Origin: Bolinopsis microptera
Taxonomy: Eukaryota > Ctenophora > Tentaculata > Lobata > Bolinopsidae
Assembly: GCF_026151205.1 (NCBI RefSeq)
Contig: NC_087075.1
Location: 7,024,858-7,088,857, forward strand
Direction of reading: 5' to 3'
DNA: 64,000 bases
The position numbers and the translations under genes are program-made. Below the pieces are notes generated by a model that worked only from the letters and a program-made list of their open reading frames with translations, did not search any database and was not told the DNA's origin. Within the stretch, counting starts at the first letter, position 1; each line of letters opens with the position of its first letter. This document shows positions 12,158 through 48,245 of the stretch, piece by piece.

Positions 12158-19355
<7,198 letters not shown>

Positions 19356-20609
19356 ACTGTGTGACTAGTTAGCTAGTTGATAAGTTGATTTGATAATTAC
19401 TCTGATAAGTGGTTAATTGCTCGGATAATTACACAGATAAGTGGTTAATTGCTCGAAGAAAAACTACTCTAATGAAATGTACTGGCAACCAACCACCTGG
19501 TTAGTGGTTAGCCTTGTGAGTACTTTACAGTTTACAGTGAGTACTACACAGAGCCTCGTGATTACAGTTTACAGAGTGTTGTTGGTGTCAGCTGATAACA
19601 CTCGCGAGTGTCAGAGCACTGTAAAAGAAGAGTGTCAGAGCATCTTGTATCTTTTAATTTTATATTTTACTTATATTAAATACAGTTTTCATCAAGTCTT
19701 TTACTCTTTTATCTTCTTAAGAGTAGTGATAGTTCTTAAGAGTAGAGGCGGAACATTGTTAATATCAGCAATCATATTTTAAAATTATAAAAACTTATTA
19801 TATTAACATATGTTTATACTTATAGGGTTAAAATAATGATGAAATGGTCTGTTATTGTCCCAAACCGTAGAGTTATGCTTAGAAACTTAATCCTTTTTTA
19901 AAAAGAATCTACCTTACTTATCCTGTTTTGCATACCCTGGTCTGTTTAAGTTGCTCAGCAATTAAACAAAATATATTCTTAAGTTTTATCATATGTATAT
20001 ACTTACACATAGCGCAATTGAGCTTTAGTTGTGAGTTATTTTATTTTGAAAAATTACTCAGGTAATATAGCTGTCTTGAAAATAGATATATAAATTAGTA
20101 TTATAATTGGAAGCTGTGATTATCGCTTCACCGTGTTGTTTGTTGGAAATTAGTAATATAAATTTATGAAATAACATTGACAATATCTATTTAGAATTAT
20201 TTATTTATCTAATGTCTTTCTGTGCTGTAGTTCGAACGATTTTTTAAACTTTATTTATCTCAGGTTTCATTGATAAGACTAAATATTTTTTGTGTTTTAA
20301 CTTGTTTGCAGGTCAAATTATTATTACATTCGCTGTAATCATTACAAAAAGAAAATGTATCTGTGTATCTGTAATATTTTTGAGTTGTATTTGTGACTGA
20401 ATTCTTTTTAAAAATTTTGCACCAATTTTGTGTCTGACTATTCCGGTATTTTCAGTTTTCAAATTCCTGATTCATTAGAAATATCTTGAAGAGTTAACGC
20501 CAGTATTGACTGCAAATTTTACATATTTGCCCAAGAATCAATAAAATTTAATAATCTATAGTGAAAATTAATAACCTTGCTAATAACAATTTCTTCATTT
20601 TAGGTAGAT
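19356..20609. other. intergenic between PHM and its copper-less paralogue
   Basis: It starts with the PHM 3' UTR. A 20-bp direct repeat (GATAAGTGGTTAATTGCTCG) occurs at about 19405 and 19437. The rest is AT-rich without a supported gene. The promoter of the next gene is presumably here. Confidence 0.4.
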
Positions 20610-22341
20610 ATGATCAGGCCCCTTCTACTCATCGTTCTCCTCCTCACATTCATCACCAAATCCTCAACAGAACTAACCTCTACTTCAAAAACGAAAGTTA
20701 CGACCAAACCCGAGCCCCCAGCTCCAAAACCTGACCCCTCTGCTCCAGACATGAAACCAAAACCCAACCCCGCTGCTCCAACGACGAACGTGAAATCCAA
20801 ACCGGAGACTCCAGCCCCTGCTCCTCCCACTGAAAAGGAAGGAGATGACCACGATTTACCACGTGACCATGTTCAAGAAGAGAACCCTCATGCTGAACAG
20901 ACCAAAAATAAGCCAGTGGCTAAACCTGGAAGGTCGCTAAAGATCACCTCAAAAGTAACTCAGGTAAAGCATGAAGACAAACTAATACCCACACATAAGA
21001 AAAAAAGCTTAACACAAACAGATATTAAAAGCAGAGTTAAGGTAAAGAAAAACATTCGGTATCAGATTGTAGCCCCACCCAAGGGTTCTGTTACTAAGTC
21101 TCCTGTAAACAAGGCTACATATCTACACATTGGACGAGACAAACACGGGCGTAGACATACCAATGGACATAACAATGGACATAACATTGGACATAAACAT
21201 GATAAGGAAAGGAAACGGATACAAAGTAAAATGTATAAAAAACACGTGGGAAAAACAGAAAGGAAACACAGACGAAAAGGAATGTTGCGGAGTAAAGAGG
21301 AATACTTACGACGACTCGAACAGAGACGACAACAGCGACGTGAATATCTTAAAAGATTTCGTGAAAGACGTCAGCGTCGTCTTAAATACCTAGGTCGACT
21401 GAAACGAAAACGAGTTGAAGGACAACGACAACAACTTGCGCGTCAAGAAAACACAGAAAAAACACATCGCAAGACAAAAATATCGCAAAAATCACATCCT
21501 AAGACAAAAACATCACAAAAAACACATTCCAAGACAAAAACATCACAAAAAACACATTCCAAGACTAAAACATCAGTTGTTGTTCCTGTCCAGAAATACC
21601 ACCATGACAAGGCTACAAAAACACGACAACTAAAAACGTATCTGAAAAAGAAGACTGACGCAGAAAAACAAAAGCATGATGCCGAGCGTAAAGTAGTTCA
21701 AGCGTATCTTTTGTTCAGGTTGTACGAGATGGTTCGGGGGTATCTTAACAGTGAACACTCCTGCCAGAAACACTTTGTTGAGGTTAAAGTTGGGACTGAT
21801 TCTCCGGCTTTTGGAGGTGAGGCTTTTTATCAGTATCAATAATAATCTTACGCCATAATTTTCTTTCAGCTTGACTTTTTGGACTTTTTTCATGTTGATC
21901 ATCCTAAAACCTTAATTAGACTCACTAATTGTAGAGTTTCTACTTTTTATCATGTATACCGAGCGAGTTGCTTTTATCAAGAGTTACTAAATGTCATTAA
22001 ACTAAATGTATTATTATATGTTGAGGCTTGGGCTACTTATCAGCTAGCTTGATGCAAAGTGTTGTATTGTTGTACTACCCTCGTTTCCTGTGTATATATA
22101 ATCTCAGTGAGTTCCCAGTGTGGTTTGTCAGATTTGGTACTCCTTTTTTTCCTGTGCCCTTTATTTACAAATAGCTGGCTGAGTACCCGGCTAGCTACAT
22201 GATATCATCACGTGATTTATATATGCATCACTATAACAGACGTATAACTAATCACTATCTTTGTATAATACTCTTTCCGCATAATATTAGAATTACACAT
22301 TTACTGGAATGTTGTTCGGTTTGCCCACGGTATGTAATGGA

Positions 22342-22372
<31 letters not shown>

Positions 22373-25300
22373 TTTTTCCACGTTTAACTGGATATCAACT
22401 GTTTAATTGGGAGACCGGGCAACTGCTACCCCGAACGCCTCCAACAAAAAGTAAATCCTTGCTGCACTCGGAGCGTATAGTTTTCTCGGTTACGTTTAAA
22501 TAATATTTCAGGTGCGCTGGTGGACTCCCCCCGTGTGTTTCTCTCTGATTTCTCTATCTCTGGGTTCGACGATACAATGAGTCGGTTGGAGTTGTATGGT
22601 TGTAAGCAGCTTCCTCAAAAAGGTTTGTTTAAATTGTTGGGTCTGTTTTAACGAAAAAGTAACCAAGTAATTTCAGATTTTTTAAAAAGGGAAAAAGTAA
22701 TTTCAGATATTCTAAGGAACCTGAATAGTAAATAATATGTTTTTTTTTGCTAATTGCAGATAATTGACGCAATTGTAAAATCTTTATAATATATTATGAC
22801 GTAATGGTTGTGTTAGGCACCCAGGGATGGTGCTCAGTATCTGATACTACACTAATTCTAGGGTGCAAAGACTATCGGCTGGATTTTAGGATTATTCAGC
22901 TAAGATACTATTGCGACATATAATTATCTTCTTCAAAAAGCAATTTTTAGATGGTTAGATACAGTTTTCATTTGATCTGTTGGTTTGAAAGGTTGTAGTA
23001 AGAAACCAGTAAAACTCAAACAGTTGTCAGTTAAGTTAGATAGTCAAGATTTGAAGATTTGTCCTCCCTGACATGTTCTCATACTGCCCCCGGCCCCCTT
23101 AATCTGATTCTACCAGAACTATCTAATTTTCTGCATTTATCCAATCGGGATATCTGCAACTCCAGAGAGTATAAGTAGAGGCATATTAAGAGGCAGTGAA
23201 ACTAGCGGGACTCACACCCCATGGCAATTGGCAACATATTATTGTCTCTCCTACCATCTGCTTATTGTCTTTCCTACCATCTATTATTTGTTATATCGCA
23301 GTGTTGAAAGTATTAAAAGTATATAATATATTACATGATAATATTATATAATATTGATCAGGTGACTGAATTCTCTGTGTGTAATGAGGCCTCGTGACTC
23401 GGACCCTTCTCATAGAATAACGTGTGCTGCCGTGTTATTACTCGCTGTACTGTGTAGTGTAGTGTACGTCTGTAACGTTAGTCATTATTTGACACTTCAC
23501 AATGTTAGTGTTTAATTGACAGCATGTTGTGTGGTGGACACTTGTGCGGTTTTTGTTTGTTGGGATGTTTTAGTTTTTACATTTTTTCTGTTTTATGATT
23601 TGAACTTCGATAATATGGTCTAGTTTGCCTGTTATTCGATACCTATTTTTTCGTTAGTTATAATTAAGTCTCATTATTAAATTTCGCTGGAATAATCGCT
23701 CATATTACTAATTACTATGTATCGCTCATTTCCATATCAATGCTTAACTTCGGTGGCGGATTTGGGCAATCATACTGATCATGATCCAACACCAGAGAGA
23801 TCCTGTCATCCAATCAGTGACGATTATTTGTATATATTGGTCAGGCAACGGAGCAACGGGTTATTAGGTAACTCTATTTTAGTTACATGCGAGATTTTTG
23901 GAGCAATCTTGTTAGCATGAGTCATGACTTTGTATCCAATAAACTTCTTCTCTATCAAAATATGCAATATAGTTATATCTTTAAATATAACCCACCCTAT
24001 GAACCTATGAAGTACTCCTTTATCAAAATATCCAATCAAGTTATTGTGCTACTGTACCTCTTGAGACTAGCCGCAATACCGACCCAGTATCCATCATGAC
24101 CTTGTGCTTGCTTCAATGTTGAATGTAGATGGGTATGTCTTGGCGAATTTAGCCGAAAATAATCTTTCGGTTTTCGAAGTCCACACCTACCCTTTGAATT
24201 TCGATATATACGATTTTCGACTCGAGGGTCCCCCCCCCTCCCTCCTTGTAATGCGATGAATATTTAGGACCTTTCTAGTTACCAGTCCAATAGCCCATAA
24301 TTTGTGCGTATTTTCATTGTTTGCTTGGCAAAAATCCATTTTTAGCCATATTTCCGAAAATAGGCATTTTAAGGTATATGTTGCTTCATAAGGTGTATTA
24401 TAGTATTAGGTACACTTTGGTGTTTCGGAATAGTTTCTACGACCACGAGATAATAACCATCGAAAAATCGCTTTTAACATGAAAAGCTAACGAGATGGCC
24501 TTTTAGAACGGCGCGGTTGGTCTCCGACTAGTTAAGTTTGAAAGAATGCAAACAAAAAATCTCTAATTTAAATAAAATTTTACAATAATTGAAAAATATA
24601 AGAGAATCTCTCATCACTTTATAACATTTCTGTCGTTTAAGGTACGCCTTTCATCTTTCGTTTGAGTCATGGGAACCATGATCATGTTATATCAAATAAT
24701 TAAATGTTTATAAAAAACGGTATTCTTCATAATTAGATGAAATCAATGATCAGTTAATAATAATTAATTGTCTCATTGCTAGAATATCGCACATATCTAT
24801 TAGAAAAATCAATAATAATTATAGTGATGACCAGTCATCTGTATTTTAAAATTTTGTACTTAAAAAAGGCCAACACATCAATTTTCACTAGTTTTCATCA
24901 TTCTATGTTTCATATTTCACGAATTAATTCGTCTGTCGACACATTTCAAGTGTTTAACTTGTTTGAAAAAGATTAAATCTATATTGTCAATTATTAAAAC
25001 AGTTCATCTTTACCAATGCCACCTTTGATCAATGCCACCTTTTCTTCGTCCTCGTCAGGCTTATCTTTGACGTAAAGTCTCATCCCAATACAGATAAGTA
25101 TAGCTATGAGAGCGAATCCAGCTAAAATCTCTGCTGACTCTGAAAATATAATATGATAGAGAAATCTATAACATTTTAATAATATTATACACTGTTTAGG
25201 GTATTATTTCAACTTTTATTAAAGTTGTGCAAAGAAAACCTTTGTTTTGAATGTTTAAAATTTAAATGTTAATCATACTTTTATTCACATTTTGTAAATT

Positions 25301-28300
25301 ATACAGCTATACAGGGTGGGCCAAAAGTCAGTGTGCAAACGTTGGGTCTTATACCTCCGCCGTGTTTTATATTTGAGAGCTGTTGCTTTGCAGATGGCAT
25401 ACTGTACTTACTGGTTCGAGGATTCCGTCGTCAAAATTTGAAAATTCGAATATTTTAGACCACGCCCATTCAATATTAAAACACCTATATTGTTTTCTCT
25501 GAACATGCTAAACGCCTAATTTTTTCAGAGACGGTAGATTATCAAATGTTGCATATGATCTGAAAACATGAGGCAAAACGGATTAGAAATGACGAAGTTA
25601 TCAAGCATTTTGTGTATCTCGTTAACAAAATTGACTGGGTGATTATGTCACATAATATGTGACACCGTGACACGACACCTTAATTGGGCACCCTTAACAA
25701 TTCCCATAATGTTTAACGGGGTAGTTAACGGGGTCACCTTATCACGTGATTAGGTAAACCAATCACCTGATCACACGTAATGAATAAACTCGTTATGCTT
25801 CATATCTCGGTCATCTGAGAAGCTACAGTTCTAATTTTTTCAGGACAAACGTAATTCGAATGGCCAAACACAATTCAATATAATTTAGCTTGATCCGACT
25901 ATCCAAACTATCAAATAAATGTGAAAATGAACCTCCATTTGAAAAAAATGAACGCGAATATTTTTCGAGTTGACAAATTCCTCGAACCAGTGGTGGTACT
26001 AAGTCATACCAGAAGAAAGTATTTCAATTGGGCACTCAGTGACTGAGCTATTAAGGCCAACGTTTGCACACTGACTTTTGGCCCACCCTGTAGTTTTGTT
26101 CACATTGACGCACATTCCTTGTGTTGTTAGTTAATCATGACGTAATCGTAAAAAAATACCTCATTTCAATTCATTTTAATTTTCATTTTATAAATTTTCA
26201 ACATACCTGAGTAAGTAAAGTAGTCCATTAGTGTCCCGGCGATGAAAGATCCTGCATAATACATGGAGCAGTATCCTATAATCCATATCGATGTTATCCT
26301 TGTTGCCATTTTCGGGGTTAACAACCCATTTTTCTGCAGCTAAAAGAATGAATTATTTGTATGTACTATGTTGTGATGTATTTAATTCTATTTTTAGATA
26401 GCTAGCCCCCATGTTTTGATAGAGGTCGGGCGGCACAGAGCCTAAATACACTACTTACTTCTGAGTTATTTATGTTAAGGTGGTGACAATTTGAAAATGT
26501 CCGAACCCTATTAAGCACATACCTGGATGTCGTAGAGGGCTCTAAGGGTAGCAATAGTAATAATGGGGTCCCCGAAACCAGCTATGAAGACTCCAGGATA
26601 TGCCAGTATTGGACTGAGATCATACAAAGCAGGTAAAGATTGTGGAGGGAAAGTTACCAGAAGTCCAGTAAAGATACACGTGGCACCAATCCCCATCACA
26701 GTCAAGGGGTTTAGAATCTTTTTCTGGAGAATAACGCCTACACTAACGCTCCCAGTCGCCATTCCAACTGAGACTAGAGTCAGAACTGTTCCGCCGTAAG
26801 AAATAGGCTTGTTGAACTCTTCCTTCAGAAAGGGGGTTACTGTGACCTGAAGAATACGTCAATGTTGCCTAAAAGGATTTTGGAACGGAGGGGGTGAGAG
26901 ATGTAGTTTAAATATATAATAAGAAGACGAGATCATTAATAATTGTTATATAATATTATGTCTGCATAAATGTTTGCGAAAATAAACAATCCGTACTTGA
27001 ATTACTCCATAGTTTGCATTAATGAGCATTGTAGCTATCATTGGAATTATCAATAACTTTGTGAGCTTATTTTTCTTCGATCCTGTTTTTAACATCGTTT
27101 GATCATCATCCGATATGTCATCTTGAGTGGACAAGTATGTTCTTGTTGTAGGAATGAAGAAAAAGCAACTTGTTGTTGCAAGAAGTGCCATGACCGCAGT
27201 GAATCCGTAGGCTGCTGTGTATCCCATTTTGTCATAGATGATACAGCCAACAGCTTCAGCCACCCCATGCCCACTAAAGTAACCCATATTCACGAGCCCG
27301 TTTACCATGTCAAAATCTTCGGGGAAGTTTGCATGGATGAAATCGACCGGTACAAGAGCGCCTGCATATGTCATAAGTCCCTGACATATCCTTAACACAA
27401 ATGAGATGGCTATAACAACAGTTGTATCGGGAATACTGTAAGCAAAGCCAGTGAGAAGCGAAGCAATTCCCCATCCTGACATGCATAGTAGTAGGATGGA
27501 CCTGCTGCTCCATTTTCTCATCAGCTTTTCCGTTCCCTGGGAGAAAACACTAAACAGAAAACCGAGGAACACACTTGATTCGAGCAAACCGTATATCTTT
27601 CCGGGGACATTTCTCCTCGAAAAAGCATCTGCTAGGAAACCATACCGAATAGAGGCACAAATACTCGAGGCATGGGCAAAGAAGATGACAGCAAAAATGG
27701 TCAGCCACTTTCGCTTTGCACCTGAAATCTTCATTTCGAGGACCTCTGAGCTAGGGAAAGGTTGTAAGTTCCGGAGTAGTTTTAATTGTAGTAAAATCAA
27801 TTAGTTACAAAGTTAGAATTTCCCTAACGGGGAAATTGGAAGATTTAGTTACGTCACTATTATACAGCCTATAAACAGCCACGATAAGACTTCTATACAG
27901 CCACCATACGACCACTATGTGGCCTATAAAGGGCCTCTTCACGGCCACGATACGGCTGCGATACGGCCAGGATACGGCCTCTATTAAACTGCCACTATTG
28001 GACCACTTATTTTCATATCTTGAACAATAATCTCAGAATGTGTGTTTTCTGTGTGTGTGTAATCTCGCTCGCTCTCTGCCATTACTGCATAATATTATGT
28101 AGCGTTGGTACAAATATCATAATTACGTGCTGTCATGGATACTTTAAATTATTAGGGGAGGGAGCGCTTTAAGTAAAGTTTATGAACTGATAGCAATTCA
28201 CCTTTCAAAATTTGCTCCTTCATAAAAATAATTATCGATTTTTGCATTCCACACATTATTTTCAACTCACCCTGTAACGGTCTGTTTGAAGTGTAGAGAG

Positions 28301-31300: not shown

Positions 31301-34300
31301 TTTTGTAAATTATAGTTTTGTTCACATTGACGCACATTCCTTGAACTCTTGTGTTTTTGGTTAATCATGACGTAATCGTAAGAAAATACCTTATTTCAAT
31401 TCATTTTAATTTTCATTTCATAAATGTTCAACATACCTGAGTAAGAAAAGTAATCCATTAGTATCCCGGCGATGAAAGATCCACCATAATACATGGAGCA
31501 GTATCCCATAATCCATATCGAGGTTATCCTTGTTACCATTTTCGGGGTTAACAACCCCTTTTTCTGCATCTAAAAGAATGAATTATTTTGTATGTACTAT
31601 GTGTCTATGTTGTGATATATTTAATTCTATTTTTAGATAGCTTGACCCCATGCTTTGATTTAGAATTCGGGCGGCAAAGAGCCTAGATACACTTCTTACT
31701 TCTTAGTTATAGTTCTTTATGTTAAGGTGGTGACAATTTGAAAATGTCCAAACTCTAAAGCACATACCTGGATGTCGTAGAGGGCTCTAAGGGTAGCTAT
31801 AGTCATAATTGGGTCTCCTAAACCAGCTATGAAGACTCCAGGATATGCCAGTATTGGACTGAGTTCATACAAAGCAGGTAAAGATCATTGTTAGGCATGT
31901 AGACAAATTTCCAGTTATCGCAAGAGTTGTCTCACTTGTTCAGAACATATTTGTCTACATCCCTCATCATGGAAAAGTTTTTAAGCCCTCAGCGCTTGGA
32001 CATCACCCTAACAGATAAAGGTGACGAAGTTGCAGATACCTACCTGCACTGGAAACAGACTCTAGACAATTTTATTACTATTCTTGGTGAAAAAGCTAAC
32101 ACCGAAGAGACACAATATATGGTGCTTTGCAATTATGTGAGCCCCTCAATATATACAACTATCAAGGGTGAAACAAAGTTTTCGGAGGCAGTTAAGATCT
32201 TGAATGGTTTGTTTGTTAAAACAAAGAATACTAACTTTGCGAGATTTTGTTTATCTACACGGAGTCAAACTGAAGCTGAATCAGTTGATCAATTCGTCTT
32301 GGCGTTGCGGACACTGGCGAAACAGTGTAATTTTACCGAAGTATCCGCTGCTGTTCATGGGGAAGAGAGCATTAGAACAGCTCTTATCAGTGGGCTAAGG
32401 GACAAGCAAATTCGGCAGCGCCTGATGGAGGACACTAAAAGTTTAGATGATACCATCACTCTGGCTTGTACTCTGGAGCAATCAATCTCAAACAATGAAA
32501 AGTATAACGGTTCTAATCTAAATGGTATTGTTAAGGGAAACGATTCTGGACTGGATTCAAATGATCATGCGGTTGTAGCTGCCACTCACGGCAATTCAGT
32601 TAGTCCTAATATAAAGTGTGGATATTGTGGTAAGGAGTACCATGTTCGAACAGCGTGTCCTGCTAATAATACTACTTGTAAAACTTGCGGTAAGCGCGGA
32701 CATTGGGCACGAGTATGTCGATCAGCGACGGGTCTTGGGAAGACCGCACCTAATGATTACTTCTCTAAGAAGAACTCTGCAAACAACGTTTATACTCCAG
32801 TCAACAACGCCTACAACGTCCCGTCCGATCAGCCCCAGCAATCATCCCCATTCTCTTATCTTTGTGCTATGTCTCCATCGACACCTTCAACGCTGTCCCA
32901 GACAACCGTCAACGCAAAGGTAAATAATCATATCGCTTACATTTTGATTGACACTGGTAGCTCAGAGAGTTTTGTTGACTTGGGTTTTGCTAGGCGAAAT
33001 GGCATAACGATAGGCCCTGGTACGAACAAAATAACTTTAGCTTCGGAATCAATGTCAACAAACACTCAGGGGTCCTGTGTAGTAGATATTGTGATTGAAG
33101 GCCACTCCTATTCAGAGTGTAAATTATCAGTTATGGACAAACTATGTTGCGACGCAATCGTGGGTTTGGATTTACTCCGAAGTCATATGAATCTTGTGGT
33201 TAATTTCGGAGGAAATAGAGATCCCTTGGTGATAGATGAAGCTGGTAGGAACTGTGCACAGCTTTCAATGTCGAACCTTGAGCCCATACCTCTATTCTCC
33301 ACATTAATGGAAGGCACCAATCCAATCGCTTGTAGATCCAGAAAGTACTCTGATGCAGAGAGAGCATTTATAGCAAAATCGGTTAAAGAGTTATTGGAAC
33401 AGGGCACTATTAGGCCAAGTAATAGTCCTTGGAGAGCACAGGTCCTCGTTACAGGTTTAGATTCGGCAAGGCCCCGAATGGTGGTAGACTACTCTCGAAC
33501 GATCAACAAATTCACACACTTGGATGCGTATCCTCTGCCAAACCTTGATACTATGGCCTCGCAGATAGCTAAGTACAGGATCTATAGCACATTCGATCTT
33601 AAGTCTGCCTACCATCAAATCCCGATTCTCGAAGGAGAAAAGCCACTCACAGCCTTTGAAGCAGCTGGGAAACTATTTGAATTTAATGGCATTCCCTTTG
33701 GAGTCACTAATGGTGGGCCTGTTTTTCAACGTAATATGGACATACTTGTGGAGGAAAATAAGTTAGATAGTGTTTTTCCTTATCTGGACAATATAACTGT
33801 TGGGGGCTATGATCAAGAAGATCACGACAAAAACGTCAAGGGGTTATTGTCGACTATTAAGAAGTTGGGACTAACGTTGAATCATGATAAGACTATAAGT
33901 TCAGTTGAAACTATCAACATTTTGGGCTATCAAATTTCTCACGGCACTATCCGTCCTGATCCTGAGCGCATGCAGCCGTTGAGGGACTTGCCGGTACCAC
34001 ATGATGCTGACTCACTAAAAAGGGCCATGGGCTTATTCTCTTATTATGCTAAATGGGTGCCAAAATTCTCGGACTTGGTACGACCTTTGATAGAACCGGA
34101 ATTCCCCCTACAGAAAGAGGCAATCACGGCATTTAATAATCTGAAAACGTGTATAGAGGGTTCCTGTGTAGTCTGCCCTAACACTAATGAGCAGATGGTG
34201 CTAGAGTCTGACGCATCTGATTTTGCAGTCTCGGCCAGTTTGAATCAAGGAGGAAAACCGGTGGCATTCTTTTCTCGAACATTGAAGCCCCATGAAAGGA

Positions 34301-37300
34301 AACATCATGCAGTGGAGAAGGAGGCTTGTGCTATTGTGGAGGCATGTCGTGCGTGGCGGCATTACTTAGTTAGCCGGCACTTTAAATTACTTACGGATCA
34401 GCAGGCTGTTTCGTACATATATGATAAAAAGAATCACGGAAAGACAAAAAACAGCAAGATAGACCGATGGCGTATTGAACTCAGCTGTCTAGACTTTGAC
34501 ATAGAGTACAGACCAGGCCCGCTTAATGTCACAGCGGACTGCTTGTCAAGAGCATTTAGTGCTGCTACATATCATACAGGTCCTTCCCTCTCTCGGATTC
34601 ACGAAGAACTATGTCACCCCGGGGTCACTAGAATGTATCACTTCGTTAGGAGTAAGAATCTTACCTATTCTCTAGCGGAGGTAAAAGAGACCATCGCGAA
34701 ATGTGTGGTGTGTTCTAAGATTAAACCACGTTTCTGTAAGTCCGAGAACTCTCCAGTGATTAAGGCAACACAACCTTTTGAACGATTGAGCATTGATTTT
34801 AAGGGACCCTTACCAAGTGGTACAGGGAACAGGTTCATATTAACTGTAGTTGACGAGTACTCTAGGTTCCCATTTGCCATTCCGTGCCGTGATCAAGAGT
34901 CAAGGACAGTGATTAAGGCGCTCATGAATTTATTTTCATTGTTTGGTACTCCGGGTATGGTTCACTCGGATAATGGACCATCACTCGTCTCTCACGAATT
35001 CAGATCATTCCTAATTGAGAACAACATTGGATTCTCAAATAGCAGCCGATATAATCCCAGAGGAAATGGTCAAGTTGAAAGGTATAACGCTGTTATTTGG
35101 AAAGGAGTTGAACTGGCGCTGGCTAGTAAGAAACTAGCACCATGTCACTGGGAACAGGTCCTCCCTCAAGTTCTCCATTCTATCCGCACCTTATTATGTA
35201 CCTCAACTAATCAAACACCTCATGAGCGACTATTTAGTTATGTTAGGAGATCTGCAACAGGTAATTCTCTACCTTCTTGGCTTATTGGAGCATCCAAGGT
35301 TCTCCTTAAGAAACACGTGAGGTCGAATAAGTACGATGATTTGTGCGAAGAGGTGGATATTGTCTCACTTCAGCCTGAATCTGCTAAAGTTAGGTTTGCC
35401 TCCGGAAGGGAGGCCTCGGTATCGATTCGGGATATTGCTCCTCTGGCAGGTCAAGTTGAGATTGACCCTGGACAAAATTCTGTTGTTGATTGCGGTGAAG
35501 TACAGACTATTGATAGGGAATTAACCGCAGGACCTGTTGTAATCGGACAAGATAGTGGCTCTGTTCCTACTAAGAATATGGGTAACCCTGCTGTTCCGCC
35601 GTCGGATGTTGTGGTATCGGACTTTACCCCTGCATTACGTAGGTCACAGAGGACTAATAAGGGAGTACCTCCTCCGCGGTTTGAGGCAGGTTGAAACTTT
35701 ATTGACTTGCTGTTTAATGAATGAGATATTTTCTGGAATTGTGATTTTTATGGTATTAACCGGATTTATAACTTGGTAGATTTGAGATTTTACAAATTCA
35801 TGTCGAATCGTGTTTTACAAATTCATGTTTTATGAGTGCCGTTTAGAACAACACATGTTTATGAAAGATGTAATTTTATACGAACCGATTATTTGGTTTT
35901 TTTGAGTATGTGACTTTTGAGAAGTTTTATCAATGTTTTTTGAGAAGTTTGAATCAATGTTTTAAATGTATCCTTATCTGCGCATTGAAATGGCGCTAAT
36001 TAGTATAAAAAGCACGATTTTTCAGCTGACGCGCGCATTTGCGCGTTTCCATTTGTTAAATTTTTAAATTTTATTTGATTTTTACGGGGGGTGTATGTTA
36101 TAATTTATTTATTAACCATTTATCATTGTTAGGCATGTAGACAAATTTCCAGTTATCGCAAGAGTTGTCTCACTTGTTCAGAACAGGAAAGTTACCAGAA
36201 GTCCAGTGAAGATACACGTGGCACCAATCCCCATCGCAGTAAAGGGGTTTAGAATCTTTTTCTGGAGAATTACGCCTACACTAACGCTCCCAGTCGCCAT
36301 TCCAACTGAGACTAGAGTTAGAACTGTTCCGCCGTAAGAAATAGACTTGTTAAACTCTTCCTTCAGAAAGGGGGTTACTGTGACCTGAAGAATACGTCAA
36401 TGTTGCCCAAAAGGATCTTGGAACGGAGGGGGTGAGAGATTTAGTTTAAATATATAATTAGAAGACGTGATCATTAATTATTATTAAATACAACATTATG
36501 TCTGCATTAATGTTTGCGAAAATGAAAAATCCGTACTTGAATTACTCCATAGTTTGCATTAATGAGCATTGTAGCTATCATTGGAATTATTAATAACTTT
36601 GTGAGCTTATTTTTCTTCGATCCTGTTTTTAACATCGTTTGATCATCATCCGATATGTCATCTTGAGTGGACAAGTATGTTCTTGTTGTAGGAATGAAGA
36701 AAAAGGAACTTGTTGCTGCAAGAAGTGCAACGACCGCAGTGAATCCGTAAGCTGCCGTGTATCCCATTTTGTCATAGATGATACAGCCAACAGCTTCAGC
36801 CACCCCATGCCCACTAAAGTAACCCATATTCACGAGCCCGTTTACCATGTCAAACTCTTCGGGGAAGTTTGCATTGATGAAATCGATCGGTACAAGAGTG
36901 CTTGTATATGCCAAAACTCCCTGACATATCCTTAACACAAATGAGATGGCTATAACAACAGTTGTATCGGAAATACTGTAAGCAAAGCCAGTGAGAAGCG
37001 AAACAATTGCCCATCCTAACATGCATAGTAGTAGGATGGACCTGCTGCTCCATTTTCTCATCAGCTTTTCCGTTCCCTGGGAGAAAACCATAAACCCAAA
37101 ACCGAGGAACAGACTTGTTCCGACCAAACCGTATATCTTTCCAGGGATATTTCTTCTCGAAAAAGCATCTGCTAGGAAACCATACCGAATAGAGGAACAA
37201 ACACTCGAGGCATGGGCATAGAAGATGACAGCAAAAATGGTCAGCCACTTTCGTTTTGCACCTGAAATCTTCATTTCGAGGACCTCTGAGCTAAGGAAAG

Positions 37301-40300
37301 GTTTTAAGTTCCGGAGTATTTTTAATTGTAGCAAAATCAATTAGTTACAAAGTTAGACTTTCCCAAACGGGGAAATTGGAAGATTAAGTTACGTCACTAT
37401 TATACAGTCTATAAACAGCCACGATAAGACCTATATAATACAGCCACCATACGACCACTATGTGGCCTATAAACGGCCACGAAATGGCCAGGATACGGTC
37501 TCTATTAAACTGCCACTATTGGACCACTTATATTCATATATAATATTATAAATTCGGACATTCTTTCATTTATCTAGTACTCATTCATACATAATTTTGT
37601 TTTTGGAGACATTTGATTAAGGACATTACAATTTAAATTTGATTCACGAAAACACTAAACTTCAAACTTTATGGAGACAAAAGAGGTGATAATGTGCCTA
37701 ATTATCATAGTACAACTTACATATTATTATATTATAATATAATATTATTGGCATTTCCGCCTAGGAAAGTCGTAGAAACTAAAAAACTGAAACTAAAAAA
37801 CTGAAACGGATTTTTGTCGAGCGAAAAATGAAATTACTCGCTAATGGGCTATTGGGCTAAGACAAGACTCATAAGCAACATATTATGATGATGAAAATCT
37901 AAAATATTATGGCTACAATGAGCATTTTGATAACAATATTGGTTCTTTTGCGATAGTCAAAACGCGACAACTAGCGCTGGATGGCGACTATCCAGCGCGT
38001 TTTGACTATCGCGTTTTGACTATCGCAAAAGAACCACAATGTACCATGTAATATATGTATATATATTATATATAATAATATTAAAACTGTTATATGTATC
38101 TACTTAAGTACTTAACAACCTTCTCATCATTAATAGATAAGCAGCGTTACCGTCAATCCGCATGCTATCCTCAGGGGAACTATCTAGCTATTGGGCCCGA
38201 GATCCGACCCTTGTTCCCTAGTGTCCGAAAAGTAAGAGATCGACCACGTAAGGCAGATTTTGGTCATTTAGACCCGCTCTAAAATCTACTTGTGGACAAA
38301 TTTCAAGACTTGTTATTAAATTAACCCCGTGATCTGACTATGGAAATTGAGACTCAGAGACTTGCCCTCAACTGGTTATCTAAACCTGGTATGTGACCTC
38401 AGTGCCCTCGGTCGAATCTCTAACCCTGCTATTCAGCCAAGTAATCTTAATCTGAGGTTTTAGGATTACACTTCTAATGTTCTAGTATTAGTGCCACAGA
38501 TAAGATCTCGAGGCAGCTGTAATAAAAAGGGCTAACCAGCGACCACTGGATTAAACAAAATAATGAGTATTATGAGGACAGACTGGGAGTCACCTCAGAC
38601 GCCAGTCTGAGGTGGGAAGTTCCAAAAACAAATAACAGTAGCGCACTATATATTACACATCTCGCGGCATATAACACATCTCGAGGCAGCTGTAATAACA
38701 AAACAGCTATCCAACAACCACGTGCTAAAAAAAACAACGAGGGAATGAATTTCACGTATTATTATAATATTATATGATGTCACGTATAATTATACGATGG
38801 GATAAACTATGCAACTGCAAAAAAATAACACGCGGTCATCCTGAAGTGGGAACCAAGTGGTTGTTGATAACGTAATAAAAATGTTGTTTTTTTCCCTCTA
38901 GAATAATAACAAATTTGAAAATATTTTTAAATTCCACTCAATTTCACTCTGATAATGTTAAATTTAGAAATTGACCGGATATCCTACTTAAGTAAGTAGT
39001 TTAGAAGGTGATTGGCCGCACATATCAATCAGAAATGTCATTAATTTCCAGGAAAAATTCTCGAGGGCTAGGTCCTGAAAAATAAATTTCGACGATCAGT
39101 GTGACATGAACTGTGGAGAAAAATTGTTTCAAGGAAAACCTTTAAAATTTGTGACTTAGAAAATGTTCTCCCCGCTTTCGAACTCGTATTGCCTGCCCTC
39201 CGATCGCATTACAAAGGGGGAGCCTCGACTCCAAGATCGTTTATCGAGGGTGAGGTGTGGACCTCGAAATCGAGATAGAAAACATGATAACTTAATAAAT
39301 TTCGGAAAAAATTTTACTGGATTGTTTTTAGTTTGGAAAGAAAAACGATTTGTACCAAATTTAAGATATTTGAAAAACAAATTTTGGGGGAGGGCCAGGG
39401 ACCCTTGTGTTCAAAAAATTGTTCAAACTAAAAATTGTCTTCTCTCTGCATATAACTCATGTTCCAATACTTGGTGTGGATTTTTGCTCTCACTTCTTCG
39501 GATACTTTGTCCTTACACTTTAAACGGCAAGAGCATGGTTTAAGAATTGGTTTCTGAGTCTCAATGCCATTATTTCGTCCACTTGCGTCATATAATGGCA
39601 TACCTTGGCCTTCAGAAGATGTGATCTCATCTGTTACATTCCCAGATCTTTCTTGTAATCGTAGTTCGTACACCATCTAATTCTTCATTAATGTCACTTC
39701 CAGTTTGAGCAAGCAAACTTTCGTTATTGATAGTGTAAATAGACGTGTGGATATATGCGAATATGTAATCTAAAAACTGATAAACTGTATTCCGCACATA
39801 GCATGAAATTGTGCTGTATATGAGTGGTGATTTCGCTCTGAAAATCAGGGACAGTAGCTCAATAGGTAGAGCAAGGCACGCGATATGTCGAGGTTCTGGG
39901 ATCATTCCCCAGTTGTCCCCAGTTTTTCAGAGTTTATCATCATCTATTATAGACAGCATGAGAGTTATAGGCCCTGCCATCTCGATGAAATAATGTTGTT
40001 GAATGGTTGTTGAATGAGCTGGTAACTTCAGGTGTGTCAACTCATTGATATTTGGGTTTATTATTAACCTGATAAAGCAATGTCTGATGATATTGATAAA
40101 AACGAAATACGACAGTGCGGACACGTACAGCAAACCAGTTATTATAAACCTGCTTGAAGCAGGTAAGATTCCGGAAAAAATCTAACCTGAAGTGGATTAT
40201 TGTGATACCCTCTCTTCATCCAGTAATTTGCGTCTAGTTACCAGAGTGCTCTGTTGAGTTCTCAGTGAAAGGCTCAACGATTGGGAAAGTCATTGAGACA

Positions 40301-42952
40301 ATTATAGAGGGACGCAGTCTTTATATATCATGAGCAAGCAGTTACAGTTTCTCTGGGACCACAGAATAGATTTAAAGAGCTTCTAAAAGAGGGACTTGGG
40401 ATACAGAATATAGTTCCGCTATGTTAGCAGCAGCACCAATGCAACATTGATTATTGGTGATTCAAACACCCGGCAGATGGTATACTGTAAATACTCATTT
40501 TATATTATGGTTGGTGGGCTAGACAGTGAAACACGCAAATGTAGTGTATACTTCGTTAAATTACATCATTAGCTACAAAGGAATTAAGTTGGTTAGTTTT
40601 ATTAGTACTAAATATACATAGATCTAAAATGCCTCAAACAATCGAGAATCAAATAACCTAAATAAAATACACAAGGTAAATGGAGATGAACTACACAAAA
40701 ATATAGCTTCCAAAATGAAGCTTCAAAAAAGAAGAATTAAAAACTAAGAACCTTATCTTTCAACTTTGCATCTATTTAAACCCAAGCAATTAGTTCTATA
40801 CTTCTCAATATACCTAAATTCCTCTCTATTTAATCCCCTGGGGTTACATTCTTTCAAAATGGCAAATTTATAGTTGTCAATAGTAAAAATGTCACTGTGA
40901 TGTTCATAGGCATGAATCGAAAGGGCTGATTTATTACGATCCTCTACTTTAAAACAGGCTCTGTGTCCATTGACACGTTTATGAAAGTTTTGCATTGTTT
41001 GCCCGAAATAAGTGTCTTCTACAACTATCTCATAACCTTCTTCCTTTATAAGATTACAAAGCTTACATTGGGCCGAAATACTCATTCGGGGATTTCGTTG
41101 CCAAAATTTGAAAATTCGATTTTGAAGTTTTGAGGGGCCACACCCAATCAACATTACCTATAACCAGGTACACTGACCGACAAGACCGATCCGACTGCAC
41201 CGTGTGGTCCGGGACCTTACACCCTCTTGTGGGCGTGGTACAACGGACAATCACCTGTTAAACTTCCGGGGGATATAGCCGTTCTTGCAGGGTAAGCACT
41301 GTTGGTATAATTATATTATTAAGATTTGTAAGTAAGATTTTGTAATTCTTATTACATTACTTTCAGAACTTCTAAGTTTGACCCATATCTATATTCTCTG
41401 AAATTTTTGTAAAATTCTGACACGAATTACGTTAGTTATTTAAGGGTTGCGTGTGGGTAGTTACTTTTGGGCCACCCTGTATATTATATTATTTAAATTT
41501 GTAAGCTATCAATTGACTCTTCAAACTTATCGCTTTTTCAGTACACAGTATTCTCAGTACACAAATGAAGTTTGTTCAGATCTAGGCAGTAAGGCACCAC
41601 AATTAGGACGGATTCCTCCTTATTTATTACATGTCTTTAGTCCTAAGAATTAATATACATTATACAATATACATTATACAATATGCATGTTATAATATAC
41701 AAGAGGAACAACACTTAAGAGCTTTAGGAAGCGAGAATGATTAGGAATAACTACCGAAATGTACATAATGTATTCCTTTTATTATTCAACTTATTAATAC
41801 GACATAACCGACCTTAACTCTATAAAGATTTAAGCTTAAGAAATTTCAAGGACCTCTTAAGGATTTCGTAATATAGTTTGCCTTGCGGTCCACCGAGTAA
41901 TGACAGTTGACTGACAATTTGACACTTCTGGGTTTAATACGGGTCAGGAGGTTCCAACTAACATATTCAACATGTTGATTTCAAACGTAATGATTTTAAA
42001 TTCGATTGGCACTCATGGGTCACCTCGCATATCAATTCAATAACGAATAACCAATTCTATGTATGTCAATATATATAATTCACTTGCACTACTTACATAT
42101 CTATCCAGGTTTGAGACAGACGTGCATTTTCTTGTGGCTCGACTGGTGAAATTCTCGATGACCAAGACAAACCGACCCATAGTCTTAGAACACAAAATCG
42201 TTAAAATCCACTTCACCGACTGCCGTAAACCAAAAAAGTACCGACACTCAAACTACAGATTTGTCAGAACCATTACCCGACCACGACCGACATTACACCA
42301 GAGACTACACGTTGACATCTCATGTAAAAACGAGAAATCAAGCTTTATTGTATATGGGTTTGTTGGTGAAATGGGAATGCACGGGAAACATATAACAGTG
42401 TGGGCTGACAACCATAAAGTGAGCATCATCCCGACTATCAACAACACGATAAACCAGACCGCCACAACCTCTAAGATAGAACTAGGTTCACTAAGAGTTT
42501 CCTACAAGATCCACCTCCTGCCCGCTCCTATCCGTATTCGGCCGGGAGAAATACTAAAAGCACGGTGTGAGTACCATGATAGTGGTAGGTACAGCGCTAA
42601 TGTTAACATTCCCTACCGGAACCCACGTGAGGAGCTGTGTAAGGTAACGCTGATGACAATGGTGCAGCACAGTTCAACTATCGGCCCTGAAACCTGTTCT
42701 ACGCCGGCTGATTTCGGGACCGAGAGTGTGACCCTGAGGTTCCCCAAACTTGGTATAGTTGAGTTCTTACAGGCGAACCCTTTTGCTGTTATGGCAGGGT
42801 TTGGTGTTCTGTTGGTGGTGGGGTTGCTGGTGATTAAATGTAGGAGTAGGGCGGTGGGAGAGAGTGAGCAGGGTGCAGGGAGAAGGGCTCACGAGTTTGA
42901 GGGATTGCTGAGGGATTATGATGAATTTGAAAGCAACTTGAAAATGAAGTAA
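20610..42952 (+). CDS. PHM-like membrane protein lacking copper ligands (putative pseudoenzyme)
   Basis: Four exons join in phase to 761 aa: 20610-21816, 22512-22622, 41168-41291, 42109-42952. Residues 1-19 are a signal peptide. Residues 20-380 form a proline-rich then very basic, repetitive stretch (S-Q-K-T-H-S-K-T-K-T units). Residues about 385-680 align with PHM: S-R-L-E-L-Y-G-C (426-433) takes the place of H-H-x-L-x-Y-G-C; C-G-P-G...L-L-W-A-W matches C-E-E-E...I-L-W-S-W; L-V-A-R-L-V-K-F replaces L-V-M-E-L-H-Y-K; Y-G-F-V-G-E replaces Y-R-T-H-A-H; and E-E-L-C (655-658) replaces D-E-M-C. All six copper ligands are therefore absent, while most fold cysteines remain. A membrane helix (about 705-724) and a tail with E-F-E-G-L-L-R-D-Y-D follow. 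The first two intron phases match the neighbouring PHM. It cannot be a standard monooxygenase; a peptide-binding or regulatory role is inference. Confidence 0.8.
21461..21575 (+). repeat. 30-bp in-frame tandem repeat coding S-Q-K-(T/S)-H-(S/P)-K-T-K-(T/I)
   Basis: About four 30-bp units inside exon 1 of the copper-less PHM paralogue encode a lysine/threonine-rich 10-residue repeat. It follows an arginine-rich segment (Y-L-R-R-L-E-Q-R-R-Q-Q-R-R) that could form a charged helix. This lumenal region would be strongly positive. It contains many dibasic sites where prohormone convertases could cut. Confidence 0.85.
22623..24204. other. start of an 18.5-kb intron; no certain gene
   Basis: This is the intron after exon 2 of the PHM paralogue. 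A 29-base poly-C run lies just before, at 22343-22371 in intron 1. No domain is recognisable here apart from the candidate orphan exon at 23384-23476. Confidence 0.4.
23384..23476 (+). other. candidate orphan first exon with a hydrophobic leader
   Basis: An ATG at 23384 opens 31 codons that read M-R-P-R-D-S-D-P-S-H then a hydrophobic stretch (A-A-V-L-L-L-A-V-L) and end exactly at a donor-like AAC|GTTAGT. This looks like a signal anchor exon. It could be an alternative first exon of the PHM paralogue, but the phase (0) does not match exon 3 (needs 1). Chance is quite possible. Confidence 0.2.
24205..24255. repeat. dispersed ~50-bp repeat (three copies in window)
   Basis: A segment like TCGATATACGATTTT-GACTCGA-G-TCCCCC..CTTGTAATGCGAT occurs here, in reverse at about 39200-39255, and again at about 45945-45998. 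No coding content is seen. It may be the end of a mobile element. Confidence 0.55.
24290..24480. repeat. inverted counterpart of the right edge of the transporter duplicon
   Basis: Segments such as GCCATATTTCCGAAAATA and CTACGACCA here are matched in reverse at about 28740-28860 (TATTTTCGGAAATATGGC, TGGTCGTAG). They flank duplicated unit A like long inverted repeats and may have helped mobilise or duplicate it. Confidence 0.55.
24994..27734 (-). CDS. MFS transporter, SLC18B1-like
   Basis: Four exons join in phase to 446 aa: 27734-26997, 26846-26523, 26339-26207, 25139-24994. The ATG at 27734 (MKISGAKRKW) is the first in frame; the open frame extends upstream without another ATG. The protein has the length and hydrophobic pattern of a 12-helix major facilitator. 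An early cytosolic-type segment (Q-G-T-E-K-L-M-R-K-W) lies between helices, a G-x-x-x-G-H-G-V-A-E-A-V-G-C-I-I-Y stretch lies in the N-half, and a G-S-F-I-A-G-T-L-M-D-Y repeat-like partner lies in the C-half. The C-terminus is acidic then K-D-E-L-F, near but not equal to an ER retention signal. SLC18B1 and vesicular amine transporters move polyamines or amines into vesicles by proton exchange; the substrate here is unknown. The gene is nested, antisense, in intron 2 of the PHM paralogue. Confidence 0.85.
25312..26090. mobile_element. 779-bp mariner-like non-autonomous element
   Basis: Perfect 34-bp terminal inverted repeats start CAGGGTGGGCCAAAAGTCAG. Flanking TA dinucleotides (25310-25311, 26091-26092) fit Tc1/mariner target duplication. 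There is no transposase frame. It lies in MFS intron 3 of unit A. Unit B has an uninterrupted site at about 31308, so insertion followed the duplication or was lost from B. Confidence 0.92.
28946..30530. repeat. dispersed-repeat block between the two duplicons
   Basis: A unit starting GGGCCCGAGATCCGATCCTT at 28946 recurs at 30108 and 38194. Downstream parts (AAGAT-TCGAGGCAGCT..., CAACCACTGGATTAAACAAA) recur at 29131, 30417 and 38500. Between 29460 and 30000 a different irregular repeat alternates CTCCCGGTAAACGAGGAGT-like words (29533, 29608, 29682, 29779) with TCTGT-TAAAACAAG-like words. Only short unsupported frames occur. Confidence 0.7.
31897..31960 (+). promoter_or_regulatory. candidate self-priming site of the LTR element
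   Basis: Directly after the left LTR, ATTTGTCTACAT (31949-31960) is the exact reverse complement of ATGTAGACAAAT inside the LTR (31897-31908). No tRNA-type TGG primer site is evident. In the yeast element Tf1 the transcript's 5' end folds back onto such a site to prime reverse transcription. In the 3' LTR the complementary word begins about 30-35 bp after a TATAATT, where transcription would start. Confidence 0.6.
31969..35694 (+). CDS. Gag-Pol polyprotein of Ty3-type retrotransposon
   Basis: A single open frame of 1241 aa starts at the ATG at 31969; the longer frame from 31927 begins at TTG inside the LTR and is unlikely. Domains in order: Gag; two CCHC zinc knuckles (about 216-252); a protease with I-D-T-G-S (about 327); reverse transcriptase with S-T-F-D-L-K-S-A-Y-H, F-G-V-T-N-G-G-P-V-F-Q and Y-L-D-N (about 605); RNase H with S-D-A-S, E-K-E-A and T-D-Q; integrase with an H-H-C-C finger and D, D, E residues (S-I-D-F, H-S-D-N-G, G-Q-V-E-R). 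The second catalytic aspartate of the usual Y-x-D-D is asparagine here. Gag and Pol are fused with no frameshift. Confidence 0.93.
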   Translation: MEKFLSPQRLDITLTDKGDEVADTYLHWKQTLDNFITILGEKANTEETQYMVLCNYVSPSIYTTIKGETKFSEAVKILNGLFVKTKNTNFARFCLSTRSQTEAESVDQFVLALRTLAKQCNFTEVSAAVHGEESIRTALISGLRDKQIRQRLMEDTKSLDDTITLACTLEQSISNNEKYNGSNLNGIVKGNDSGLDSNDHAVVAATHGNSVSPNIKCGYCGKEYHVRTACPANNTTCKTCGKRGHWARVCRSATGLGKTAPNDYFSKKNSANNVYTPVNNAYNVPSDQPQQSSPFSYLCAMSPSTPSTLSQTTVNAKVNNHIAYILIDTGSSESFVDLGFARRNGITIGPGTNKITLASESMSTNTQGSCVVDIVIEGHSYSECKLSVMDKLCCDAIVGLDLLRSHMNLVVNFGGNRDPLVIDEAGRNCAQLSMSNLEPIPLFSTLMEGTNPIACRSRKYSDAERAFIAKSVKELLEQGTIRPSNSPWRAQVLVTGLDSARPRMVVDYSRTINKFTHLDAYPLPNLDTMASQIAKYRIYSTFDLKSAYHQIPILEGEKPLTAFEAAGKLFEFNGIPFGVTNGGPVFQRNMDILVEENKLDSVFPYLDNITVGGYDQEDHDKNVKGLLSTIKKLGLTLNHDKTISSVETINILGYQISHGTIRPDPERMQPLRDLPVPHDADSLKRAMGLFSYYAKWVPKFSDLVRPLIEPEFPLQKEAITAFNNLKTCIEGSCVVCPNTNEQMVLESDASDFAVSASLNQGGKPVAFFSRTLKPHERKHHAVEKEACAIVEACRAWRHYLVSRHFKLLTDQQAVSYIYDKKNHGKTKNSKIDRWRIELSCLDFDIEYRPGPLNVTADCLSRAFSAATYHTGPSLSRIHEELCHPGVTRMYHFVRSKNLTYSLAEVKETIAKCVVCSKIKPRFCKSENSPVIKATQPFERLSIDFKGPLPSGTGNRFILTVVDEYSRFPFAIPCRDQESRTVIKALMNLFSLFGTPGMVHSDNGPSLVSHEFRSFLIENNIGFSNSSRYNPRGNGQVERYNAVIWKGVELALASKKLAPCHWEQVLPQVLHSIRTLLCTSTNQTPHERLFSYVRRSATGNSLPSWLIGASKVLLKKHVRSNKYDDLCEEVDIVSLQPESAKVRFASGREASVSIRDIAPLAGQVEIDPGQNSVVDCGEVQTIDRELTAGPVVIGQDSGSVPTKNMGNPAVPPSDVVVSDFTPALRRSQRTNKGVPPPRFEAG
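37940..38036. repeat. compound hairpin
   Basis: TGGTTCTTTTGCGATAGTCA at 37940 pairs with its complement ending at 38036, and the right arm contains an extra copy of CGCGTTTTGACTATCG. An inner hairpin (AGCGCTGGAT / ATCCAGCGC) sits in the loop. It is likely a small foldback or MITE and lies in intron 2 of the PHM paralogue. Confidence 0.75.
38193..38760. repeat. third copy of the GGGCCCGAGATCCGA repeat
   Basis: Collinear with 28946-29370 and in part with 30108-30480, ending near CAACGAGGGAATGAATTTCAC as in the 29 kb copy. It is a dispersed element of several hundred bp with no coding content. Confidence 0.7.
38761..39847. other. no gene seen; contains a reverse copy of the ~50-bp dispersed repeat
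   Basis: Open frames around 39163-39543 have no recognisable domain and overlap the dispersed repeat at 39200-39255. I see nothing I can support as a gene. Confidence 0.4.
39848..39919 (+). tRNA. tRNA-like sequence, probably pseudogene or SINE head
   Basis: 72 nt fold as a cloverleaf: acceptor GGGACAG/TTGTCCC, D stem GCTC/GAGC and T stem CTGGG/CCCAG all pair. The anticodon arm is imperfect and lacks the usual T before the anticodon, and the T loop (ATCATTC) is not the normal TTCRANT. It therefore looks like a decayed or tRNA-derived copy; the isotype cannot be called safely. Confidence 0.45.
39920..40752. other. no gene seen
   Basis: Part of the large intron of the PHM paralogue. There are short palindromes (ACCTGCTTGAAGCAGGT at 40148) but no supported gene. 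Confidence 0.4.
40753..41148 (-). pseudogene. GIY-YIG endonuclease fragment of a retroelement
   Basis: The minus-strand frame ends at 40753. From about 41080 it encodes a C-x-x-C segment (Q-C-K-L-C-N), T-Y-F-G-Q-T-M-Q-N-F-H-K-R-V-N-G-H, then A-Y-E-H-H and a conserved E-K-Y. This pattern is the C-terminal GIY-YIG nuclease seen in Penelope-like elements, here with Y-F-G for Y-V-G. The reverse transcriptase is missing. The first 25 or so residues of the frame come from a different repeat and are not part of it. It lies just before exon 3 of the PHM paralogue. Confidence 0.6.
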
Positions 42953-43129
42953 GTTGAAGTTGTATGTTAGGTGATTAATGATTATGAATTTACCATGTAA
43001 CAGCGTTTAAAACCTTGAAGGTTTTGTCGTGAAAAGCACAACGATACAGAGGTGCAGTTTTTAATGATTCGTTTTTTGTGCAAAAAAAACTTTAATTTCG
43101 GCCTTGGGGCAAATTTATCTATTGTTTAA

Positions 43130-47925: not shown

Positions 47926-48245
47926 TATGATATACTAAAATTATTTAAACATTATTTGACAATCTGTGGGGTATCTATTGGTATTTATTATTTATTTATC
48001 GACTATTTCAATTGTGTTTTTATTGCCGAAAACTCAGAAAATAATTCAAATTTATTTCTAAACCCAATTCTGATCGAAACCTGATCGCCAGAATTAAATT
48101 AATTGATTGTAATCAACTTTTTTCTTGTTCAACACAAAAATTATTTTGCATCCTTGTTATATTAAATGCTTGTTTATTTTTATTGCTATTTGTAACTTAC
48201 AGATCTCAATCAAAAACTTCCTTCTTCTTTCTAGGTCCCCACAGA
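47926..48245. other. DUS3L 5' flank
   Basis: AT-rich sequence. A pyrimidine-rich stretch and acceptor TTTCTAG at 48234 lie just before the DUS3L ATG, so a non-coding 5' exon is likely upstream. Confidence 0.4.

What the first reader, a model, noticed from the sequence alone, without database searches (positions are those of the whole stretch)
20610..42952. A PHM paralogue that has lost every copper ligand but kept the fold and membrane anchor
Four in-phase exons give a PHM-like protein in which the H-H pair (S426-R427), the H-Y-K histidine (V), both histidines of T-H-x-H (V, E) and the copper methionine of D-E-M-C (L) are all replaced. Cysteines at Y-G-C, C-G-P-G, I-S-C, A-R-C, E-L-C and E-T-C that correspond to PHM disulfides remain, as do the splice phases, transmembrane helix and tail. 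Loss of the full metal site with a retained scaffold is the signature of a pseudoenzyme, here with a new basic proline-rich N-terminal domain. I know of no described copper-less PHM next to active PHM and PAM.
Basis: partly seen in the sequence, partly recalled or inferred. Interest (0 to 1): 0.88.

Follow-up and report, generated by a model that had tools for sequence, protein, structure and literature searches.

The report
Copper-free PHM-like membrane protein gene
Between two normal genes for peptide-amidating enzymes, probably in a comb jelly, lies a related gene whose protein seems to keep the fold, the membrane anchor and part of the tail but has lost every copper-binding residue, which suggests a structural or carrier role in place of the enzyme's chemistry.

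Summary
Four exons (20610-21816, 22512-22622, 41168-41291, 42109-42952, +) join through GT-AG introns into an open 761-residue protein. Its core is a very divergent PHM: phmmer E 1e-5 to PHM chains of the PDB; hhalign probability 98, E 2e-13, 22% identity. Residues I recall as substrate-binding (R240, N316, Y318) are also gone; six core cysteines, a membrane helix and a PAM-like tail remain. One of three introns shares position and phase with the neighbouring PHM gene. Open PHM (12158-19356) and PAM (50468-58620) genes with all six ligands flank it. Chromosome number and size fit a ctenophore. Openness and core codon usage argue against decay, but an 18.5-kb intron, no transcripts and no orthologues leave a split gene possible. 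Structure prediction never ran. Best reading: a copper-free PHM-fold cargo receptor or scaffold of the granule membrane; precedent: inactive mammalian PAM (M314I) still restores proANP storage. The mechanism is inference.

The parts
20610..21816 (+). Gene B exon 1: signal-peptide-like start (by eye), Pro/Ala/Lys-rich stalk (residues 22-78), strongly basic low-complexity region (net +66 over residues 101-380), start of the core with C385
   Evidence: residues 86-402 give only the self match in the genome; open frame not chance
21144..21200 (+). His-rich run, six His in 19 residues (179-197)
   Evidence: position; 12-bp tandem repeat 21154-21196
21297..21422 (+). Three consecutive 14-residue basic repeats (starting at residues 230, 244, 258)
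   Evidence: positions; repeat read by eye
22512..22622 (+). Exon 2: first PHM block; S426-R427 (22580-22585) stand where H107-H108 stand in rat PHM; C433 equals C114
22623..41167 (+). Intron 2, 18,545 bp, same position and phase as intron 2 of the neighbouring PHM gene; holds duplicated MFS-like frames (- strand) and a gypsy-like frame (resemblance recalled)
41168..41291 (+). Exon 3: C452 equals C131; LLWAW...LPGD block
42109..42952 (+). Exon 4 with stop: V494 (42146-42148), E568 (42368-42370), G570 (42374-42376), L657 (42635-42637) in place of H172, H242, H244, M314; C553, C634, C658, C677 retained
42782..42838 (+). Transmembrane helix (residues about 706-724)
   Evidence: read by eye from the sequence
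42839..42949 (+). Cytosolic tail with EFEGLLRDYD, like GFQKLLRDYD in the PAM gene
   Evidence: 1 of 5000 shuffles as good against the PAM tail; not better than chance against gene A's tail
12158..19356 (+). Gene A: membrane PHM, 10 exons, 372 residues, open, all six ligands
   Evidence: (best E 3e-56 to PHM chains of the PDB)
50468..58620 (+). Gene C: bifunctional PAM (PHM plus NHL/PAL part), 12 exons, 791 residues, open, all six PHM ligands, acidic N-terminal stalk (net -12 over residues 23-97); PAL active-site residues not checked

Best explanation
Gene B is a tandem PHM/PAM-family duplicate that encodes a type I membrane protein with a PHM-like double domain but no copper site and no peptidylglycine site. 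It most likely works without catalysis in the secretory pathway: the PAM-like tail and helix carry it along the PAM route, the copper-free domain acts as a scaffold, and the basic N-terminal region binds acidic partners in the granule lumen (prohormones, polyanions, or the acidic stalk of the neighbouring PAM), so that it acts as a cargo receptor or granule scaffold. Shown: homology, ligand loss, retained cysteines, resemblance of the tail to the PAM tail, coding character of the core. Inferred: expression, fold, localisation, binding partner.
For: Homology and ligand loss. Residues recalled as holding the substrate are also replaced: R240 V, N316 K, Y318 T. The core, the Pro-rich start and the membrane/tail part use codons like their neighbours (0, 0 and 2 of 1000 synonymous recodings reach the observed score). 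The tail resembles the PAM tail (1 of 5000 shuffles). Opposite charge of N-terminal stretches of B (+66 over residues 101-380) and C (-12 over residues 23-97). Precedent: PAM with M314I has no monooxygenase activity yet restores proANP storage in atrial myocytes, and PAM is proposed as its cargo receptor (PMC8793981, passages); B has L at that position. Apo-PHM crystallises close to wild type (RMSD 1.6 A; PMC6123673, passages), so the fold does not need copper.
Against: No transcript, orthologue or structure. The basic segment 111-380 shows no codon bias (722 of 1000 recodings as good); for the Pro-rich start and for the whole gene the synonymous-only score is slightly higher in frame +1 than in frame (0.134 against 0.097; 0.035 against 0.028). 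B's tail does not resemble gene A's tail beyond chance (2316 of 5000). PMC6123673 (passages) also reports that absent or altered copper loosens the domain arrangement. No localisation or partner evidence.
Confidence: 0.4

Rival explanations
1. Decaying or split gene: the insertion of an MFS gene pair and a gypsy-like element into intron 2 broke an already divergent PHM copy, and the exons are remnants or two separate transcripts.
For: Intron 2 is 18,545 bp while the other 22 introns of the three genes are 127-3172 bp; it holds duplicated MFS frames and a long gypsy-like frame. The first AATAAA/ATTAAA after the stop lies 704 bp away (319 for A, 584 for C). Exon 1's basic part lacks codon bias.
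Against: No stop or frameshift in 761 codons. The intron's duplicated blocks differ by 4.9% substitutions and 1.0% indel events over 3752 aligned bases; if exons 3-4 had drifted neutrally since that duplication, they would be intact with probability about 0.015 (0.39 for stops alone, 0.04 for frameshifts alone; assumes that the duplication arose in the intron). Intron 2 position and phase agree with gene A.
Confidence: 0.13
2. The basic N-terminal region is the working part (adhesive, matrix-binding, antimicrobial or nucleic-acid-binding), and the dead PHM domain with helix and tail is only its anchor.
For: 280 residues of net +66 charge with 10-residue (30-bp) and 14-residue repeats (the latter by eye); only the self match in the genome.
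Against: It would not by itself explain why six core cysteines stay aligned in a domain without a role; the region has no recognised family.
Confidence: 0.25
3. The protein still handles metal: the His-rich run at residues 179-197, or the E-M-G-M-H-G-K-H stretch at the old CuM site, binds copper or zinc, so that B loads or buffers copper for the neighbouring PHM and PAM.
For: Six histidines in 19 residues and Met/His residues beside the lost H-x-H.
Against: Low-complexity His runs arise readily; none of the six ligand columns holds His or Met; no structure.
Confidence: 0.07

Closest known systems
Peptidylglycine alpha-hydroxylating monooxygenase (PHM domain of PAM)
   Same: Two-domain PHM sequence pattern, six core cysteines, membrane helix, tail like that of the PAM gene, one intron position and phase shared with gene A
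   Different: All six copper ligands and the residues recalled as substrate-binding are replaced; 17-21% identity to C, D, A and rat; about 380-residue, mostly basic N-terminal region; no PAL domain
Inactive PAM (M314I) acting as proANP cargo receptor (PMC8793981, passages)
   Same: No monooxygenase activity expected; same ligand position altered
   Different: That is a single laboratory mutation in an otherwise normal PAM; here all ligands are gone in a separate gene
Gene D on contig C8 (L012:3128-6214), PAM-like
   Same: Divergent PAM-family gene of the same genome with ligand loss
   Different: Keeps H242, H244 and M314 equivalents and NHL repeats of the PAL part, lost only H107, H108 and H172
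PNGase F-like jelly-roll pair (recalled, not tested)
   Same: PHM-like fold without copper, from memory
   Different: No comparison was made

Membership tests
PHM / copper type II ascorbate-dependent monooxygenases | Homologous two-domain sequence | tested here: met
   phmmer 1e-5, hhalign 98%, E 2e-13, 54.9 bits against shuffle maximum 8.1
PHM / copper type II ascorbate-dependent monooxygenases | Match to Pfam Cu2_monooxygen or Cu2_monoox_C | tested here: not met
   0 families for B, whole protein at E up to 1 and last 396 residues at E up to 10; genes A and C match both models
PHM / copper type II ascorbate-dependent monooxygenases | Six copper ligands (HH, H, HxH, M) | tested here: not met
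   S, R, V, E, G, L
PHM / copper type II ascorbate-dependent monooxygenases | Core disulfide cysteines | tested here: met
   Cysteines at C114, C131, C227, C293, C315, C334; pairing recalled; C126 and C186 equivalents absent in B, as in A and C
PHM / copper type II ascorbate-dependent monooxygenases | PHM double jelly-roll fold | not tested
   15 requests for structure prediction were not accepted
PHM / copper type II ascorbate-dependent monooxygenases | Peptidylglycine hydroxylation | not testable with these tools
   needs an assay
PAM | PAL lyase domain after PHM | tested here: not met
   membrane helix follows the PHM part directly; no Pfam match in B
Pseudoenzyme | Homologue of an enzyme without its catalytic residues | tested here: met
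Pseudoenzyme | Expressed and selectively maintained | tested here: inconclusive
   Open frame and core codon use favour it; no transcript, no orthologue

The most novel reading that the evidence does not exclude
Probability: 0.25. Interest if true: 0.8.

Novelty: new variant of a known kind. Interest (0 to 1): 0.55.

Why it matters
PAM is usually seen as an enzyme, yet catalytically dead PAM still supports peptide storage in heart cells. A natural, copper-free PHM beside PHM and PAM genes with full copper sites would separate the structural from the chemical role in a single genome, in an early-branching animal lineage with neuropeptides, and would make the structural role directly testable. 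It would also warn against counting PHM-like genes as amidating enzymes without checking ligands.

Tried and rejected
Pfam membership: no hit. Orthologues: none in viral contigs (4 pattern matches, 0 confirmed) or genome contigs (15 pattern matches, 0 confirmed); only the self match in the own genome for exon 4 and for residues 86-402 of exon 1. Hence no dN/dS for B. An alignment of B's exon 4 with single exons of A and C (A2) was misaligned and not used. Species: the VWYamide DNA pattern gave 21 scattered matches against 67 for the reversed control, no support. Three DIOX_N (IPNS-type) matches were found; I read frames for two of the three loci, and neither the one long frame nor the partial one ends in FYY. 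The ctenophore reading therefore rests on 13 large contigs, genome size and innexins, not on these.

Structure prediction of exon 4's luminal part was asked 15 times and never accepted (100 jobs waiting); no fold search could follow. An Rfam scan of the window at gathering scores found nothing.

Papers, what I saw: PMC9525235, PMC6123673, PMC8793981, PMC6529398, PMC10232365 and PMC4488382: passages by word search, plus abstract starts in listings; PMC11797021: search listing and start of abstract. Searches for a described copper-less PHM or for PAM in ctenophores and other non-bilaterians: 25 of 29 listed; 10 of 10; 20 of 284; 6 of 6; 0 found; 7 of 9; 3 of 3; none of the listed titles or abstract starts describes one.

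Full report
What is there. The window lies on contig C4 (7024858-7088857) of a 264.65-Mb genome in 232 contigs. Contigs C1-C13 are 15-26 Mb each and by my hand sum hold about 97.5% of the bases; of the other 219 contigs I looked at the lengths of 6, the longest 0.2 Mb. This fits the published lobate ctenophore Bolinopsis microptera (n = 13; 13 scaffolds with 97.23% of the assembly; about 254 Mb by k-mers; PMC10232365, passages) and its relatives (Mnemiopsis leidyi 247.97 Mb, karyotype 13; PMC11797021, abstract start). Eighteen innexin matches are compatible with this. Two marker searches gave no further support. The organism is therefore likely, not proven, to be a ctenophore.

Three PHM/PAM-family genes stand in tandem on the + strand. 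Gene A (12158-19356) is a membrane PHM of 372 residues in 10 exons. Gene C (50468-58620) is a PAM of 791 residues in 12 exons with PHM and NHL/PAL parts (PAL active-site residues not checked). Both keep all six copper ligands. Gene B, the finding, lies between them. In the whole genome PF01082 is found at 3 places at E up to 0.001, all in A and C, and PF03712 at 5 places at E up to 10: A twice, C twice, and gene D on contig C8 once. These searches do not see B, go exon by exon, and score only the best candidates.

The observation. The four exons of B join through three GT-AG introns of phases 1, 1 and 2 into 761 codons without a stop. Exon 1 keeps its frame open in 0 of 5000 dinucleotide shuffles, its basic segment in 0 of 5000 with 14.2 stops on average. 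The core is related to PHM: phmmer against PDB sequences E 9.9e-6; hhalign against a profile of A, C, D and rat 98%, E 2.1e-13, 22% identity over 241 columns; hmmsearch 54.9 bits against a best of 8.1 in 1000 shuffles; Smith-Waterman z 19.5 to rat, 14.6 to A, 7.3 to D and 6.7 to C with 200 shuffles each. Pfam itself does not recognise B.

The ligands. On the joint alignment H107 and H108 are S426 and R427, H172 is V494, H242 is E568, H244 is G570 and M314 is L657. By eye each lies in a block without gaps between rat and B, anchored by shared residues (DT..YGC; LP..ET; DISC..GK; E-x-C). One other alignment, that of the profile search, puts K495 in place of V494 at H172; that is no ligand-preserving choice either. 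R240, N316 and Y318, which I recall as substrate contacts, are V566, K659 and T661. The rat roles of H107, H108, H172, H242 and H244 were seen in PMC6123673 (passages) and the effect of M314I in PMC8793981 (passages). Cysteines equivalent to C114, C131, C227, C293, C315 and C334 stay. C385 and C519 are additional luminal cysteines that could form one new disulfide (inference).

Gene anatomy. Intron 2 of B and of A lie at the same residue and phase; introns 1 share phase but not position; intron 3 matches neither neighbour; exon 4 spans the region in which A and C have several introns. The tail of B resembles that of C (1 of 5000 shuffles as good) but not that of A (2316 of 5000), while A's tail resembles C's (1 of 5000). 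B's core scores nearer to A and rat than to C. B is thus probably an old tandem duplicate; the intron-free 3' end might reflect recombination with a cDNA (speculation). The N-terminal region has a signal-peptide-like start (by eye), a Pro-rich stalk, and 280 residues of net +66 with a His-rich run and 14-residue repeats. C has an acidic stalk (-12 over 75 residues) at the same end.

Is it alive? For: codon usage of the core (0.231 bits per codon in frame; -0.300 and -0.357 in the other two forward frames; A 0.276 and C 0.271 by leave-one-out) and synonymous choice (0 of 1000 recodings as good). If exons 3-4 had drifted neutrally since the duplication inside intron 2, the chance of an intact frame is 0.015, mostly from indels; this assumes that the duplication arose in place. 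Against: the basic segment shows background synonymous usage (722 of 1000), and for the Pro-rich start and the whole gene the synonymous-only score is slightly higher in frame +1; the first polyadenylation-like hexamer is 704 bp after the stop; intron 2 is about six times longer than the next longest. No orthologue was found with these tools, so purifying selection was not measured.

How it most likely works. Without copper and substrate residues it should not hydroxylate peptides. Mammalian PAM gives the model: PAM with M314I is enzymatically dead but restores proANP storage, and PAM is proposed as a recycling cargo receptor (PMC8793981, passages). Apo-PHM keeps its structure, though with altered flexibility (PMC6123673, passages). 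I therefore propose a cargo receptor or granule scaffold, with the basic region as binding surface and the tail for trafficking, at 0.4. Rivals are an anchor for a basic effector region (0.25), a split or decaying gene (0.13), and a metal-handling accessory (0.07). That B is a real protein-coding, copper-free PHM homologue I hold at about 0.8.

A wider pattern. Gene D (L012:3128-6214), a single long frame on C8 with PHM C-domain and NHL matches, has A, Q and T at H107, H108 and H172 but keeps H242, H244 and M314 (in one search the H-H pair falls in a gap). The genome thus holds PHM domains with both sites (A, C), one site (D) and none (B). PMC9525235 (passages) reports ctenophore PAMs with the domains needed for amidation and says that 'short' incomplete homologues were left out of its trees because of uncertainty about their functions, causes and origins; B may belong to such models.

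Novelty. Seven searches of open papers (some listings capped) listed none that describes a copper-less PHM paralogue; subscription papers, including the 2012 PAM survey of non-bilaterians cited in PMC9525235, were not seen. I file B as a new variant of a known kind: a member of the PHM family by descent, failing its defining copper site.

Noticed in passing
L012:3128-6214 (contig C8 of the same genome): Long single-frame PAM-like gene whose PHM part has lost the three CuH ligands but keeps the CuM ligands; the region before it may hold further degenerate N-domain copies (by eye).
   Followed up: partly
window 26648-28018 and 36186-37539 (- strand): Two MFS-like frames inside intron 2 of gene B, duplicated with flanks; over 277 aligned codons of the stop-to-stop frames dN 0.054, dS 0.041, ratio 1.34; of 31 residue differences only two lie after about residue 215.
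   Followed up: partly
window 31903-35694: Gypsy-like retroelement reading frame of 1263 codons inside intron 2 of gene B (resemblance recalled, no family search made).
   Followed up: no
window 43126-44495: Large fold-back element with C/G-run ends, starting 174 bp after gene B's stop codon.
   Followed up: no
window 61780-63765: Long frame ending in a GIY-YIG-like stretch, resembling a Penelope-type element (resemblance recalled).
   Followed up: no
window 48045-50078: DUS3L-type dihydrouridine synthase in one long frame (Pfam Dus 8.6e-59) between genes B and C.
   Followed up: no
window 55285-56416: 40-bp tandem repeat array, about 28 copies, inside an intron of the PAM gene.
   Followed up: no
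window 58158-58244: 44-bp duplication that doubles the splice acceptor of the PAM gene's last exon.
   Followed up: no
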